This document shows positions 3,509 to 54,097 of a stretch of 64,000 nucleotides of DNA, piece after piece. Source of the stretch: Brucella cytisi (GTDB taxonomy: Bacteria; Pseudomonadota; Alphaproteobacteria; Rhizobiales; Rhizobiaceae); the NCBI GenBank assembly GCA_012103075.1, contig JAAVLQ010000001.1, positions 2,097,001-2,161,000 on the forward strand, in the 5' to 3' direction. Position numbers and translations under genes: made by a program. Each line of letters starts with the position of its first letter. Position 1 is the first letter of the stretch. The notes below the pieces were generated by a model. That model did not search any database, was not told the origin of the DNA, and saw nothing but the letters and a program-made list of their open reading frames with translations.

Positions 3509-3622
3509 ATTTTCAGAGGCTTTTGACGAAAGCTTGTAAATAGAACGGATTGGGCAGTTGTTCCGTTCCGCACGCCTGCATGTGGAAATCGATATTCCCC
3601 GATATGCAGCAAAAAAGCGCAC

Positions 3623-3720
3623 AAAAAAGAGCCGCAATGGCGGCTCTCAGGAGTTTAACAGGGAGGCGTCAAACAGAGTGGCTAAACCACTCGGTAAGAA
3701 TCCAGCCGAACTGGATGTAA
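3623..3720 (-). ncRNA. Candidate trans-acting small RNA with three hairpins and terminator
   Basis: Read on the minus strand this gene-free stretch folds into three consecutive hairpins: ATCCAG/CTGGAT (3716-3700), GAGTGG/CCACTC (3692-3676) and a GC-rich AGAGCCGC/GCGGCTCT stem (3647-3628) followed at once by six T, a standard intrinsic terminator. The linker before the terminator carries an unpaired CCTCCCT stretch that could pair with ribosome-binding sites. No open frame fits, and no coding gene ends here, so the terminator has no other client: opgC has its own terminator at 3814-3832. The 5' end is a guess. Confidence 0.45.
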
Positions 3721-3740
3721 ACCATTTAACATTCTTAAGA

Positions 3741-3756
3741 TTAATGAATGGTTAAT
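3741..3756. promoter_or_regulatory. Near-consensus CtrA-type box upstream of the candidate sRNA
   Basis: TTAATGAATGGTTAAT matches TTAA-N7-TTAAC with one mismatch in the last base. It lies about 20-35 bases upstream of the presumed 5' end of the candidate small RNA, the placement typical of CtrA-activated promoters. Inference from motif only. Confidence 0.35.
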
Positions 3757-3813
3757 TTCTGCGTAGCGCTGTGGATAATCTCACGCAATCCGGCACTTTT
3801 CACTCAAAGAGAA

Positions 3814-18556: not shown

Positions 18557-18661
18557 GAGAATGCCTTATAAACTTGCGCCAAGCGAACGCAAGCCGATCA
18601 GGGCATTTTGCAGTCAGGCGGAATTGCCTGACCTCGCATAAATGCAGGGAAAAAAAACTAA

Positions 18662-18702
18662 TGCATGTCCCCAAAAGCGCGAACCGGTTTTGGGGACATG
18701 CA
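18662..18702. repeat. Dispersed palindromic element
   Basis: TGCATGTCCCCAAAA and TTTTGGGGACATGCA form a perfect 15-base stem around a GCGCGAACCGG loop. The core, CAAAAGCG-GAA-CGGTTTTG, recurs at 26723, 52933 and in weaker form at 21649. It lies between ymdB and the cyclo-ligase gene and could also end the latter's transcript. Confidence 0.7.
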
Positions 18703-18714
18703 CGAAAACAAAAT

Positions 18715-19319
18715 TTAGAGCGGCAGCTCGGTTCCAACCGGGCGCAAGCCGCTCTCGGTCAGGATCTGGTTGAGCGCGATATCATGCGGCTCATTTGGCA
18801 CATGCTCGACTTCACGGCAGTCGAAAGCCATGCCGATCAAAAGCGGCTGCAGACCGCGTTCGGTGAACCGCGCCAGCGCGCGGTCGTAGTGTCCTGCACC
18901 ATAGCCAAGTCGATGCCCACGCTGATCAAAACCTGCAAGTGGCATCAACAGGATCGCAGGATCGACAATCGGCGCATCTGCTCCCGGCCCCATCGTGCCG
19001 AAACCCGTCTGACGCAATCTGGCATCAGGCAGATATTCACGAAAGGCAATCGTTTCCTTGTCCAGAACAACGGGGAGGCAAAGCCGGGCACCCTTGGCGC
19101 GAAGCGCCGATAATAATGGGCGTGGGTCGATTTCAGAACGGATCGGCCAATAACCAGCAATCAAGGTGCCTTTGGGAACGTCAATTGCAGCTTCACCTTT
19201 TTGGCTGCTGCCAGCGAAGCCTCGTAATGAAAGCGCGGATCAAGCGCATCACGGACCGCCAGAACCTTGCGTCTAAGCTCCTGCTTTTCCAGACCGGGGC
19301 TGCGCTCCGTTGCCGTCAT
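18715..19319 (-). CDS. fau: 5-formyltetrahydrofolate cyclo-ligase (one frame break)
   Basis: The restored 201-residue enzyme has the family pattern: KQELRRKVLAVRDAL at the start, IAGYWPIRSEIDPRPLL, LPVV in the core, and the nucleotide/substrate site LAGFDQRGHRLGYGAGHYDR. It converts 5-formyl-THF to 5,10-methenyl-THF using ATP. A G is missing near 19197. In many bacteria this gene lies downstream of 6S RNA; here an SRPBCC gene sits between them. The ATG at 19319 is chosen because translation from it matches the family N-terminus. Confidence 0.9.
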
Positions 19320-20374: not shown

Positions 20375-20496
20375 CAAGAGCGCAAATCGTTGGAGCTTTG
20401 CGCATGTTTACGAACAAATTGTCCGTTAGATCAAGCTCATAGCTATCCTGCGACAGCCAGAGGAAAAGAAAGCGGCGACCACGACGACCGATGGTA

Positions 20497-20642
20497 GTGA
20501 TTGATCCCGGGAACCTACAAAGTAGGTGGGCGCCATATGCGAAAGCCCGCAAGCCTTCACAGGGACAGCTCCCTTAGAGATCAATAAGGCCCCGGGGATG
20601 CTGTTACACCTGTCGGGAAGCGCAGTTCGCCAAGGCCCAATA
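20497..20642 (-). ncRNA. ssrS: 6S RNA (SsrS)
   Basis: The stretch between zapA and the SRPBCC/cyclo-ligase genes has no coding frame but is GC-rich and self-complementary, and on the minus strand it ends with GGCGCCCACCTAC before an AGGTTCCCGGGATC tail, as I recall for rhizobial 6S RNAs. A TACTATATT -10-like sequence lies just upstream of the presumed 5' end. 6S RNA binds the housekeeping sigma factor holoenzyme and typically sits between zapA and fau. Ends are approximate; structure prediction would refine them. Confidence 0.72.
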
Positions 20643-25532: not shown

Positions 25533-26724
25533 ATGAGTTTCCGCACTCTCGACGATGCTGACGTCAAGTCCAAGCGCGTACTGGTCCGCGTTGACCTCAA
25601 CGTGCCGATGGCAAATGGCGAAATCACCGACCTGACCCGTATCGAGCGTATCGTTCCAACCATTGCCGAGCTTTCCGGGAAAGGCGCAAAGGTAATTCTG
25701 CTCACCCATTTCGGTCGCCCCAAGGGCGTTGCTTCGGACGAGAATTCATTGAAGCATGTTGTGAAGCCGCTCTCCAAGGTGCTTGGACACGGTGTCCATT
25801 TTGCCGAAGACTGCATCGGCGAGCACGCCAAGGCCGCCGTCGATGCACTGAAGGACGGCGATGTCCTGCTTCTGGAAAACACCCGTTTCCACAAGGGCGA
25901 GGAAAAGAACGATCCGGAATTCGTCGCGGCTCTGGCAGCCAATGGCGATCTTTATGTGAACGACGCGTTTTCGGCTGCCCACCGCGCCCATGCTTCGACC
26001 GAAGGCCTCGCACACCGTCCTGCCCGCCTATGCGGGCCGCGGCATGCAGGCCGAGCTTGAAGCGCTGGAAAAGGGCCTTGGCAATCCGGCTCGTCCGGTT
26101 GTCGCCATCGTCGGTGGCGCAAAGGTTTCAACCAAGCTCGACCTCTTGTCCAACCTGATCGAAAAGGTTGATGCGCTCGTTATCGGCGGCGGCATGGCTA
26201 ATACTTTCCTAGCAGCACAGGGACACGATGTCGGCAAATCGCTCTGCGAGCATGAGCTGGCCCACACCGCCCGCGAAATCATGGCCAAGGCCGAAACCAC
26301 CAAATGCGCGATCATCCTTCCGGTCGATGCTATCGTGGGCTGGCACTTTGCAGCCGACACGCCGAACAAGACCTATGGAGTCGATGCAGTTCCAAGCGAC
26401 GGCATGATTCTCGATGCCGGGGCACTCTCGACCGATCTAATCGCCTCGGCCATCGATGATGCGGCCACGCTTGTCTGGAACGGTCCGCTCGGTGCGTTCG
26501 AACTGCGTCCGTTCGACACCGCGACGGTTAAGACCGCAAAACACGTCGCAGCCCGCACCAAGGCTGGCAAGCTGGTTTCGGTCGGCGGCGGCGGCGATAC
26601 GGTCGCAGCCCTCAATCATGCTGGCGTAGCCGATGACTTCACCTATATCTCGACCGCAGGCGGCGCCTTCCTCGAATGGATGGAAGGCAAGCCCCTCCCC
26701 GGCGTTGATGTGTTGAAGAAGTAG
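25533..26724 (+). CDS. pgk: Phosphoglycerate kinase (one frame break)
   Basis: The restored 396-residue enzyme has the family signature [12 protein letters not shown] near residue 15, the basic patch [17 protein letters not shown], the hinge region [20 protein letters not shown] and the nucleotide site [16 protein letters not shown]. It makes ATP from 1,3-bisphosphoglycerate. An extra C near 26022 splits the protein after residue 163. Its stop codon overlaps a dispersed palindromic element, and a terminator follows at 26783. Confidence 0.96.
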
Positions 26725-26764
26725 AGCATTTCCAGCAAAAGCGTGAAGCGGTTTTGCACGGAAG
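26723..26764. repeat. Dispersed palindromic element after pgk
   Basis: The unit AGAGCATTTCCAGCAAAAGC, then GTGAAGCGGTTTTGCACGGA, is nearly identical over about 35 bases to the copy inserted in the TPP riboswitch at 52933 and shares its core with 18662. The GCAAAA/TTTTGC arms pair. Confidence 0.7.
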
Positions 26765-26782
26765 AATGTATGAGAACAAATA

Positions 26783-52133: not shown

Positions 52134-52790
52134 TTATCGGCCCCAGAGCGGTGTTTCCTCCATCGCCAAGTTGGCTATAAGTATCGCCAATCCAGAACTC
52201 GCAGTAACGCGAAGTGTTCCACGAACTACATTGGAAACTGTCCATGAAGAGCCGAATGGCAGTGTCACATTATCTAACGGCCACTCCGCATTCGTGATCG
52301 AAAGGCCTTCGATAGTGCTGAAATTAATCACACTGAACGGCGTCCCGTCCGGAAAATCATAAACATAATCTCCGGGCGGCAAAGGCCGGGCCTCCTCGGA
52401 ACCGCTGGACAACAGCACGTTCCGCCCTTTTGCAGCCTGCGCTGTCGCCATGGTCAGATGCAGAAGCGTGTGATCAGTGCGCTGACCGCCGAAGGCTCCG
52501 CAAAGGATCACCCGATCCGCACCCCGCATAAAGGCCTCCTCGAAGGCCAGTTCCCCGTCCGTCATGTCCTTGGCAGCAGGGAACCTCTTTTGCGGCACGT
52601 GTCCATATTGCACGCGAAGCTCAGCAGAAGCCGAATCGAAATCGCCAAGCCAAAGTTCCGGTTCGACACCAAGAGCAGCGGCGTGCCTGATCCCGCTATC
52701 GGCAGCGAGAATACGCGCACCTGCAATTTGGTGTTTCAAGCGATCGGTCACGACCAGATCACCGCCAAGGAGAATGACGAATGTGCTCAT
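52134..52790 (-). CDS. thiN: Thiamine pyrophosphokinase
   Basis: This intact 218-residue enzyme has FVILLGGDLVVTDRLKHQIA, the catalytic acidic patch LAADSGIRHAAALGVEPELW followed by LGDFDSAS, MTDGELAFEEAFMRGA, and GAFGGQRTDHTLLHLT. It converts salvaged thiamine to TPP with ATP. It diverges from the riboswitch-controlled thiBPQ operon, so uptake and activation genes lie back to back. Confidence 0.92.
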   Translation of the reverse strand: MSTFVILLGGDLVVTDRLKHQIAGARILAADSGIRHAAALGVEPELWLGDFDSASAELRVQYGHVPQKRFPAAKDMTDGELAFEEAFMRGADRVILCGAFGGQRTDHTLLHLTMATAQAAKGRNVLLSSGSEEARPLPPGDYVYDFPDGTPFSVINFSTIEGLSITNAEWPLDNVTLPFGSSWTVSNVVRGTLRVTASSGLAILIANLAMEETPLWGR

Positions 52791-52890
52791 AAGCCGCTCA
52801 TAACACGGGCAAATCCATGCCGGAAGCCTGCATTCGCCGCCATTGCACTCCCTTGCCCTTCCCGTTGCGAAAGATTATTCTCGCAACCGC

Positions 52891-53039
52891 TCTAACGGGG
52901 TGCCGTCTGCTTTCGCGGATGGCTGAGAGGCCCAAAAGCATTTCCAGCAAAAGTGTGAAACGGTTTTGCGTCCGGAAATGCTTAAAAAAACGGCCAACCC
53001 GCTGAACCTGATCCGGTTTGCACCGGCGGAGGGATTAGA
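52891..53039 (+). promoter_or_regulatory. TPP riboswitch (THI element) upstream of thiBPQ, with an inserted palindrome
   Basis: The conserved THI-box segments appear in order: TCTAACGGGGTGCC, GGCTGAGAGG at 52921, ACCCGCTGAACCTGATCCGG at 52997 and CACCGGCGGAGGGATTAGA at the end, whose TTAGA closes helix P1 with TCTAA. Between the GCTGAGA part and the ACCCG part lies a 51-base hairpin insertion (52933-52983) from the dispersed palindrome family, extending arm P3. The element should switch thiBPQ off when TPP is bound. Confidence 0.93.
52933..52983. repeat. Dispersed palindromic element inside the TPP riboswitch
   Basis: AAGCATTTCC pairs with GGAAATGCTT, with inner GCAAAA/TTTTGC arms around GTGTGAAACGG. 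About 35 bases are nearly identical to the copy after pgk at 26723. The hairpin sits where the riboswitch tolerates extension (P3), leaving the aptamer core readable. Confidence 0.85.
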
Positions 53040-53094
53040 TGCTCCATAAACGGCGCTCAATCCTCTTGTTGTAAAAAAGAAAGGAAGTGCCGTG

Positions 53095-54097
53095 ATGCGG
53101 CTTTTTATCTTTGCTGGCCTTTTCATTCTCCACAGCCCTCGCTTTCACGCCTTCTGCGCAGGCGAAGGACAAGCTCACTGTTTATACCTATGACAGTTTC
53201 GTTTCCGAATGGGGCCGGGCCCGAAGATCAAGGAAAACTTCGAGAAGGAATGCGATTGCGAAGTGGACTGGATCGCTTCGGCCGACGGTGTCGCCCTGCT
53301 CAACCGCCTGAAGCTTGAAGGTGGCAATACCAAAGCCGATATCGTCCTCGGTCTCGATACCAATCTGACGACCGAAGCACGCGCCACCGGCTTTTTGCTC
53401 CAAGCGGCATCGACCAAAGCAATGTGAGCGTTCCGGGCGGGTTCAAGGACGATATCTTCGTTCCCTATGATTATGGCTACTTCGCCGTGGTATACGATTC
53501 GGAAAAATTGCCCAATCCGCCCAAGAGCCTGAAAGAACTGGTGGAAGGCGATGCTTCCCAGAAGATCGTGCTGCAAGACCCGCGCACGTCGACACCGGGG
53601 CTGGGCATGTTGCTCTGGATGAAATCGGTTTATGGCGACGAAGCGGAAGCAGCCCGGCAGAAACTTCAGAAGCGCGTTCTCACCGTCACGCCCGGCTGGT
53701 CGGAAGCCTATGGTCTTTTCACCAAGGGGAAGCGCCGATGGTGCTGTCCTATACAACGTCTCCCGCCTATCACATGATTGCGGAAAAGACGGAGCGCTAT
53801 AAGGCTCTGGCCTATCCGGAAGGTAATTATCTCCAGATCGAGCTGGCCGCCCAGACCACCACTGGCGCGAAAAATCCACTGGCGCAAAAGTTCCCGGCTT
53901 TCATGACCAGCCCCGGCTTCCGGGATGTTATTCCTGAAACCAACTGGATGTATCCAGCGGGCAAGACATCCACCCCGCTTCCAGCCGCTTTCGACGCGAT
54001 GCCGAAGCTGGAAAAGACTCTTCTCCTGCCTTCCGACGAAGTAGCCAAGAACCGGAAGTCATGGGTCGATGAATGGCTGGCGGCAACCAGTAAATGA
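53095..54097 (+). CDS. thiB: Thiamine ABC transporter, periplasmic binding protein ThiB (four frame breaks)
   Basis: After correction the protein of about 334 residues has a signal peptide ([20 protein letters not shown]), then [68 protein letters not shown]-like and [20 protein letters not shown], the ThiB pattern. It binds thiamine or TPP in the periplasm for ThiPQ. Breaks: an extra T near 53104, and missing bases near 53216, 53402 and 53729. It lies 55 bases after the riboswitch, and its stop overlaps the thiP start as ATGA. Confidence 0.93.

What the first reader, a model, noticed from the sequence alone, without database searches (positions are those of the whole stretch)
52891..53039. 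TPP riboswitch carrying an inserted dispersed palindrome in arm P3
All conserved THI-box segments are present, but a 51-base perfect-type hairpin (52933-52983) interrupts the sequence between the GCTGAGA and ACCCG parts. The hairpin is nearly identical over about 35 bases to an intergenic repeat after pgk at 26723. A mobile or expanding palindrome has landed in a variable riboswitch arm and may alter folding or RNase sensitivity while keeping the aptamer.
Basis: partly seen in the sequence, partly recalled or inferred. Interest (0 to 1): 0.75.

Follow-up and report, generated by a model that had tools for sequence, protein, structure and literature searches.

The report
Dispersed palindrome nested in TPP riboswitch
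A vitamin B1-sensing RNA switch in an Ochrobactrum-type bacterium carries, in a side arm that varies between relatives, a short hairpin that is also scattered around the genome; the second B1 switch of the same genome carries a cousin of it in another arm, so genomic repeats appear to have lengthened RNA sensors outside their conserved core.

Summary
Window 52886-53051 (+) is a TPP riboswitch (RF00059, 57.6 bits, cut-off 54.3) upstream of a thiBPQ-like transporter. A 46-nt hairpin (52937-52982) lies between CTGAGA and ACCC. That arm is the optional P3a, not P3. At least 121 hairpin copies are in this genome; the pgk copy differs at 2 of the first 33 bases. Of 35 genomes of the genus, own included, 34 have the thiB-type riboswitch: 9 carry the palindrome in P3a, 25 have a short P3a. 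A second TPP riboswitch, upstream of thiD, carries a related but different 46-nt palindrome in P3 in 16 of 35; six genomes have both. Within G000 the two differ at 13 of 46 positions, 10 of them in five compensated pairs. Dispersed full-length copies seen are two-armed units of about 100 bp, polymorphic between species, resembling published Bru-RS/CIR repeats; the riboswitches hold one arm. Covariance fit and Shine-Dalgarno hairpin are unaffected; single-sequence folds are mixed with and without the insert. Best reading: a non-autonomous palindromic element fixed in tolerant peripheral arms, near neutral for TPP sensing. Precedent exists in Rickettsia RNAs; my searches found none for riboswitches.

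The parts
52886..53051 (+). TPP riboswitch aptamer (THI element) of the thiBPQ-like transporter operon
   Evidence: Rfam RF00059, 57.6 bits, gathering 54.3
52902..52923 (+). arm P3, ordinary short hairpin, no palindrome
   Evidence: sequence, Rfam alignment, folds
52923..52928 (+). conserved CTGAGA between P3 and P3a
   Evidence: sequence, Rfam alignment
52929..52932 (+). 5' strand of the P3a closing stem (GGCC)
   Evidence: pairs with the 3' GGCC in the aptamer folds of the G033 and G018 orthologues
52937..52982 (+). 46-nt imperfect palindrome capping P3a: one arm of the dispersed repeat
   Evidence: R1 model 69.4 bits (this sequence is among those the model was built from); fold z -4.3; absent from 25 of 34 thiB-type riboswitches of the genus
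52992..52995 (+). 3' strand of the P3a closing stem (GGCC)
   Evidence: sequence, folds of orthologues
53051..53092 (+). predicted hairpin enclosing the Shine-Dalgarno AAAGGAAG: likely translational expression platform
   Evidence: predicted in 6 of 6 folded leaders, 3 with and 3 without the palindrome
53095..54097 (+). thiB-like substrate-binding protein gene, split by frameshifts in this assembly
   Evidence: orthologue in G034 is one 340-aa frame, SBP_bac_1; window ORFs are broken
52134..52790 (-). divergent thiamin pyrophosphokinase gene
   Evidence: Pfam TPK_catalytic and TPK_B1_binding
26725..26770 (+). dispersed copy of the palindrome directly behind the stop codon of pgk, 3' arm degenerate
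   Evidence: R1 31.2 bits; present in G034, absent in G033, G008, G007, G010
18662..18702 (+). another, divergent dispersed copy
   Evidence: R1 32.1 bits; absent in G033, G034, G010, G008 and, as to the palindrome itself, G007

Best explanation
This is an ordinary TPP riboswitch whose optional arm P3a has been lengthened by one arm of a dispersed, non-autonomous two-armed palindromic repeat of the Bru-RS/CIR kind. The palindrome folds on its own as a hairpin on top of a retained P3a closing stem and leaves the conserved TPP-binding segments and the Shine-Dalgarno hairpin as they are in relatives without it. TPP sensing and translational control of the thiamine transporter therefore most likely work as usual. 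The same kind of event happened separately in the thiD riboswitch, in P3. Shown: presence, position, repeat nature, natural short arms in relatives, repeated gain or loss on two trees, largely kept pairing. Inferred: that the aptamer binds TPP, that the insert is close to neutral, and that it entered by transposition and not by another route.
For: Covariance fit inside the aptamer above the gathering score. Dispersed copies: 50 of the core with 0 in the backward control, at least 121 by model (no control). Natural short P3a in 25 of 34 and short P3 in 19 of 35 riboswitches of the genus; among 50 named loci the riboswitch was recognised in 37, and 7 of these carry the palindrome. Aptamer folds of G033 and G018 show P2 and P3a with the palindrome on top; all 4 palindrome-bearing thiD aptamers folded show P2, P3, P3a, P4 and P5 with the palindrome extending P3. 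Same Shine-Dalgarno hairpin with and without the palindrome, 6 of 6 leaders. Units of about 100 bp present in one species and absent at the same place in another; at one site with TA at both ends. Pairing across both loci: 92.9% of cells paired, 8 of 18 pairs with two-sided changes (18 of 500 shuffles reach that), covariation score reached by 0 of 500.
Against: Single-sequence folds are mixed: the window's own aptamer loses P2 in its minimum-energy fold; of six aptamers P2 appears in 4 (2 of 3 with, 2 of 3 without the palindrome), of six whole leaders in 3. All 6 thiD aptamer folds replace P1 by another pairing. The riboswitch inserts are one arm only and not flanked by TA, so direct transposition is not demonstrated. 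Much of the covariation between the loci may have arisen in dispersed subfamilies before insertion; within thiD alone 2 pairs have two-sided changes, a number 60 of 500 shuffles reach. Further pair types are not above shuffles (85 of 500, 417 of 500). One thiD row (G029, one extra base) was left out of both alignments. No transposase was tied to the element.
Confidence: 0.76

Rival explanations
1. The palindrome has been recruited for a function of the leader RNA, for example guiding co-transcriptional folding, protecting the leader or offering an RNase site, and is kept by selection as a replaceable RNA module.
For: Pairing is largely kept in place within the thiD locus: 92.1% of cells paired, two-sided changes at pairs 6-41 (U-A/G-C) and 11-33 (G-C/A-U), covariation score reached by 1 of 500 shuffles. 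Two different subfamilies in two riboswitches of one pathway. Rough estimate of mine: chance placement in these few loop bases is unlikely.
Against: Absent in close relatives: thiD filled in G033 but empty in G018, sisters on the rpoB tree. Riboswitch copies are not more stable than dispersed ones (21 against 29 copies, p = 0.19). The number of pairs with two-sided changes within thiD is reached by 60 of 500 shuffles. G029 carries an extra base in the inner stem at thiD.
Confidence: 0.15
2. P3a and P3 simply grew local hairpins, and the likeness to the dispersed repeat is convergence or reverse spread from the riboswitch.
For: Long, unrelated P3a arms do occur in the wider family, e.g. G073, whose insert has no other match in its genome at E <= 0.1.
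Against: 2 differences in 33 bases to the pgk copy, 50 near-copies against 0 in the control; congeners without the insert in either riboswitch also hold many copies, at least 137 matches in G034 and 136 in G010.
Confidence: 0.03
3. The presence/absence pattern comes from exchange of the whole thi loci between species by recombination, not from insertion and loss in place.
For: The flank tree and the rpoB tree differ, e.g. G018 and G033 are sisters only on the latter, and both have weak nodes.
Against: The flank tree follows the loci themselves and still needs at least 2 changes for thiB and 6 for thiD; the rpoB tree needs 4 and 6. Presence is clustered on both trees (0 or 1 of 1000 shuffled label sets need as few changes), as mostly vertical descent would give.
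Confidence: 0.2

Closest known systems
TPP riboswitch, Rfam RF00059 (THI element), with optional arm P3a
   Same: Conserved segments, arm order and thiamine-gene context; P3a is optional and riboswitches are known to tolerate variable stem-loop insertions (Barrick and Breaker 2007, PMC2258182, passages).
   Different: The P3a extension here is a dispersed genomic repeat present in a hundred or more copies, not a locus-specific hairpin.
Bru-RS1 / Bru-RS2 palindromic repeats of Brucella (Halling and Bricker 1994, not seen; as described in PMC10800456, PMC2266754, PMC3163539; passages)
   Same: Related palindromic repeats of 103 and 106 bp in the same genus; dispersed copies looked at here are about 100 bp with two palindromic arms.
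CIR repeats of Caulobacter and Brucella (Chen and Shapiro 2003, not seen; as described in PMC2229807; passages)
   Same: Two arms joined by a linker and TA at the ends; GANTC behind the first arm in 10 of 29 dispersed copies against 4 of 29 control stretches.
   Different: GANTC is far from universal here, and 0 of 25 riboswitch inserts contain it.
Rickettsia palindromic elements in tmRNA and RNase P RNA (Ogata 2002, not seen; as described in PMC2229807, passages)
   Same: A mobile palindrome inside a conserved structured RNA, apparently tolerated.
   Different: Different element and host; here the RNA is a ligand-sensing riboswitch, and two riboswitches of one genome carry it in different arms.

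Membership tests
TPP riboswitch (RF00059) | Covariance score above the curated cut-off over the full model | tested here: met
   57.6 bits against 54.3, model 1-105
TPP riboswitch (RF00059) | Located in the leader of a thiamine gene | tested here: met
   Downstream permease (26.8 bits, cut-off 26.4) and, in the G034 orthologue, substrate-binding protein of an ABC transporter; upstream divergent thiamin pyrophosphokinase. Thiamine specificity of the transporter is inferred from context
TPP riboswitch (RF00059) | Binds TPP and controls expression | not testable with these tools
   Needs in-line probing
Dispersed palindromic repeat of this genus (model R1) | Many copies outside the riboswitch with the same hairpin | tested here: met
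   50 near-copies of the core, backward control 0; at least 121 model matches
Dispersed palindromic repeat of this genus (model R1) | Presence/absence at the same place between species | tested here: met
   Sites at window 18662 and behind pgk, and at L265 and L255
Bru-RS1/Bru-RS2 | Full-length unit of 103-106 bp | tested here: not met
   Riboswitch inserts hold one 46-nt arm plus an A-rich remnant; dispersed copies reach about 100 bp
Bru-RS1/Bru-RS2 | Sequence identity with the published repeats | not tested
   No sequence in the passages seen
CIR | GANTC motif in the loop of one arm | tested here: not met
   0 of 25 riboswitch inserts; 10 of 29 dispersed copies have GANTC within 74 nt behind the hairpin
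REP with a RAYT (Y1) transposase | Y1 transposase gene accompanied by the repeat | tested here: not met
   The one Y1_Tnp match in this genome, on C3, has no R1 match within its 3.2-kb locus; a neighbouring frame looks TnpB-like to me, not searched

The most novel reading that the evidence does not exclude
In this genus TPP riboswitches have become repeated landing and loss sites for a palindromic mobile element: two subfamilies entered two riboswitches of one pathway in two different arms, and the hairpin is a swappable RNA module that tunes leader folding or stability without altering ligand recognition.
Probability: 0.18. Interest if true: 0.75.

Novelty: new variant of a known kind. Interest (0 to 1): 0.52.

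Why it matters
It shows a concrete source of long variable arms in riboswitches: genomic repeats that already fold as hairpins. Close relatives with and without the insert at two riboswitches give a natural experiment on how far peripheral arms can change while the sensor still works, and on whether RNA-shaped repeats are filtered into tolerant loops.

Tried and rejected
The family-wide covariance search (394 genomes) prints a capped list of the best matches, so long-armed riboswitches are hidden; replaced by pattern scans. These allow no mismatch in the conserved blocks, so divergent riboswitches are missed, and only 8 of the 35 genomes of the genus were in that draw. Long P3a: 24 of 394 genomes, 24 matches, backward control 0; 3 matches hold this palindrome (G000, G002, G012). 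Long P3: 12 of 394 genomes, 14 matches, with 4 matches of the backward control in 3 genomes; 3 matches hold it (G000, G012, G021). The other matches show, by eye, unrelated arms or chance hits. The long P3a of G073 was tested as another dispersed repeat: no other place in that genome at E <= 0.1.

REP/RAYT origin: the only Y1 transposase match has no palindrome in its locus. Elements inside other known RNAs: 40 dispersed loci (29 of the 50 sites, 11 of the 15) scanned against Rfam; 0 of these palindromes lies inside a family. The closest is L030, whose hairpin ends 62 nt before an RNase P RNA match (my notebook entry gives a larger distance, which was wrong). A stability advantage of riboswitch copies was not found. 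The sigma-70 scan gave no promoter match in 52780-53110.

Literature: searches listed no paper whose title, abstract start or passages seen report a dispersed palindrome or MITE inside a riboswitch aptamer; one search was too broad to use. I read passages of nine papers, no whole paper. The library lacks most subscription journals.

Full report
What is there. The window lies in a 5.87-Mb, three-contig genome of an Ochrobactrum/Brucella-type bacterium (inferred from named relatives). Rfam places a full-length TPP riboswitch at 52886-53051 (+), 57.6 bits against a gathering score of 54.3. It stands between a divergent thiamin pyrophosphokinase gene and an ABC transporter operon; I call it thiBPQ-like from context. 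The covariance fit treats the extra sequence as an insert in the stem after CUGAGA. That stem is the optional P3a; Barrick and Breaker count 552 TPP riboswitches with it and 355 without (PMC2258182, passages). P3 of this riboswitch is an ordinary 22-nt hairpin.

The hairpin. It is 46 nt (52937-52982; letters checked): an outer stem of nine to ten pairs, an A bulge, an inner stem with one G.G mismatch, a GAA loop and a 4-nt internal loop, -20.4 kcal/mol, z -4.3. The copy behind pgk differs at 2 of its first 33 bases but has a degenerate 3' arm. The whole genome has 50 matches of the 33-nt core at up to 3 mismatches, 0 for the pattern read backwards. A covariance model built from the riboswitch copies (R1) gives 121 matches among the 150 candidates scored in this genome, a lower bound; counts over the 35 genomes of the genus run from 2 (G009) to 143 (G005) under the same limit.

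Relatives. All 35 genomes of the genus set, own included, have TPP riboswitches. The thiB-type riboswitch was found in 34 (not G028); 9 carry the palindrome in P3a and 25 have a P3a of 11-17 nt. Among 50 loci with organism names the riboswitch was recognised in 37, and 7 carry the palindrome: B. tritici (two records), B. pseudintermedia, B. daejeonensis, B. oryzae, Ochrobactrum sp. CGA5 and the isolate AFS055504; B. pecoris, for example, does not. In G002 the sequence behind the aptamer differs, so its thiB-type riboswitch may serve another gene.

A second case in the same genome. The other TPP riboswitch of G000 precedes a gene whose product, in the G034 orthologue, matches phosphomethylpyrimidine kinase; scripts and early notes call this locus thiC-type, which was wrong. 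In 16 of 35 genomes its P3 is 65-67 nt long and contains a palindrome of the same architecture but another subfamily; in 19 it is 10-16 nt. Six genomes carry both (G000, G007, G012, G019, G029, G033). No thiB-type P3 and no thiD-type P3a is long. A third TPP riboswitch, upstream of thiC in G002, was recognised in 8 genomes and carries none. thiB and thiD inserts align without gaps (G029 thiD left out); within G000 they differ at 13 of 46 positions, within G033 at 12, and in both cases 10 of these form five compensated base pairs. Dispersed copies close to the thiD subfamily were seen in G028, G029 and G013, so the two riboswitches received different subfamilies.

Pairing. Over 21 distinct sequences (7 thiB rows for 9 genomes, 14 thiD rows for 15 of 16 genomes) 92.9% of cells pair, 8 of 18 pairs have two-sided changes (reached by 18 of 500 shuffles), and 0 of 500 shuffles reach the covariation score; the number of further pair types is not exceptional (85 of 500) and the outermost pair is unpaired in 16 of 21 rows. 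Because dispersed copies show similar differences, much of this may predate insertion. Within the thiD locus alone the covariation score is reached by 1 of 500 shuffles, but the number of pairs with two-sided changes, 2, by 60 of 500. This suggests that pairing was kept while the hairpin sat in the riboswitch; it does not prove selection.

The element. In five relatives with syntenic stretches, copies lie at places where others have none. Of the five sites aligned, three copies of the closest type, two in G010 and one in G033, are two-armed units of about 100 bp with an A-rich linker. At one G010 site the unit has TA at both ends against an uninterrupted site in G034; a second is consistent with this. 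Published Bru-RS1/2 copies are 103 and 106 bp (PMC10800456, passages). CIR repeats are described as two arms with a linker, TA ends and GANTC in one loop (PMC2229807, passages). GANTC follows the first arm in 10 of 29 dispersed copies, against 4 of 29 control stretches, and is in 0 of 25 riboswitch inserts. The riboswitches hold only the first arm and an A-rich remnant. I therefore call them derived from a Bru-RS/CIR-like repeat, not members of it.

How it works. Single-sequence folds are only partly helpful. Of six thiB aptamers folded, P2 appears in 4 (G033 and G018 with, G034 and G020 without the palindrome) and is missing in 2 (the window's own, with it, and G010, without it); in whole leaders it appears in 3 of 6. 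So the folds do not separate riboswitches with and without the insert, and for the window itself the case rests on the covariance fit. In the 4 palindrome-bearing thiD aptamers folded P2, P3, P3a, P4 and P5 are as expected, while P1 is replaced by another pairing, as in the 2 without the palindrome. A hairpin enclosing the Shine-Dalgarno is predicted in all 6 thiB leaders, 3 with and 3 without the palindrome. Inference: TPP stabilises P1, the Shine-Dalgarno hairpin then forms and translation drops, palindrome or not.

History. On a tree from thi-locus flanks the thiB insert needs at least 2 changes and the thiD insert at least 6; on an rpoB tree of 34 genomes (G022 had no match) at least 4 and 6. 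Presence is clustered on both trees: 0 or 1 of 1000 shuffles of the labels need as few changes. On the rpoB tree G018 and G033 are sisters, differ at thiD and share the thiB insert; on the flank tree they are not sisters. Both trees have weak nodes, and recombination of the thi loci is not excluded.

How surprising. Variable stem-loop insertions in riboswitches are known in general, and Rickettsia palindromic elements occur in tmRNA and RNase P RNA. What appears new, within the searches named under Tried and rejected, is a dispersed palindrome inside riboswitch aptamers, twice in one genome and in two different arms. In the wider family (394 genomes drawn, exact-pattern scans) it was seen only in this genus. 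If about a hundred copies were scattered evenly over intergenic DNA (my assumption), hitting the few loop bases of both riboswitches would be unlikely. Many past insertions over the genus weaken this argument, and it was made after the fact.

Noticed in passing
window 53095-54097; G000:C1:1429219-1430892: thiB is broken into overlapping frames here, and rpoB of the same assembly matches in 4 pieces; with 85.78% completeness this points to indel errors in the assembly rather than real gene loss.
   Followed up: partly
window 26722-26728: The pgk copy begins right at the stop codon: G000 and G034 with the element read TAG, four relatives without it read TAA. The element may have inserted at the TA of the stop codon and supplied its last base; several other dispersed copies also start with TAGAGC.
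   Followed up: partly
window 20473-20631 (-) and 3622-3764 (-): 6S RNA and the alphaproteobacterial sRNA BjrC1505.
   Followed up: no
L210 1440-1640 (G073): TPP riboswitch of another genus with a long P3a holding a hairpin that has no second copy in its genome at E <= 0.1: arm growth also happens without this repeat.
   Followed up: yes
L030 1501-2036: A two-armed copy stands directly beside RNase P RNA: the first hairpin ends 62 nt before the Rfam match and its second arm fills most of the gap.
   Followed up: no
window 18600-18733: A stretch missing in G033, G034, G010 and G008; G007 shares its outer part without the inner palindrome, so a repeat seems to have inserted into an older repeat.
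   Followed up: partly
G009 (35-genome set): Only 2 palindrome matches, against 36 or more in every other genome of the genus set: the repeat is nearly absent from this lineage.
   Followed up: no
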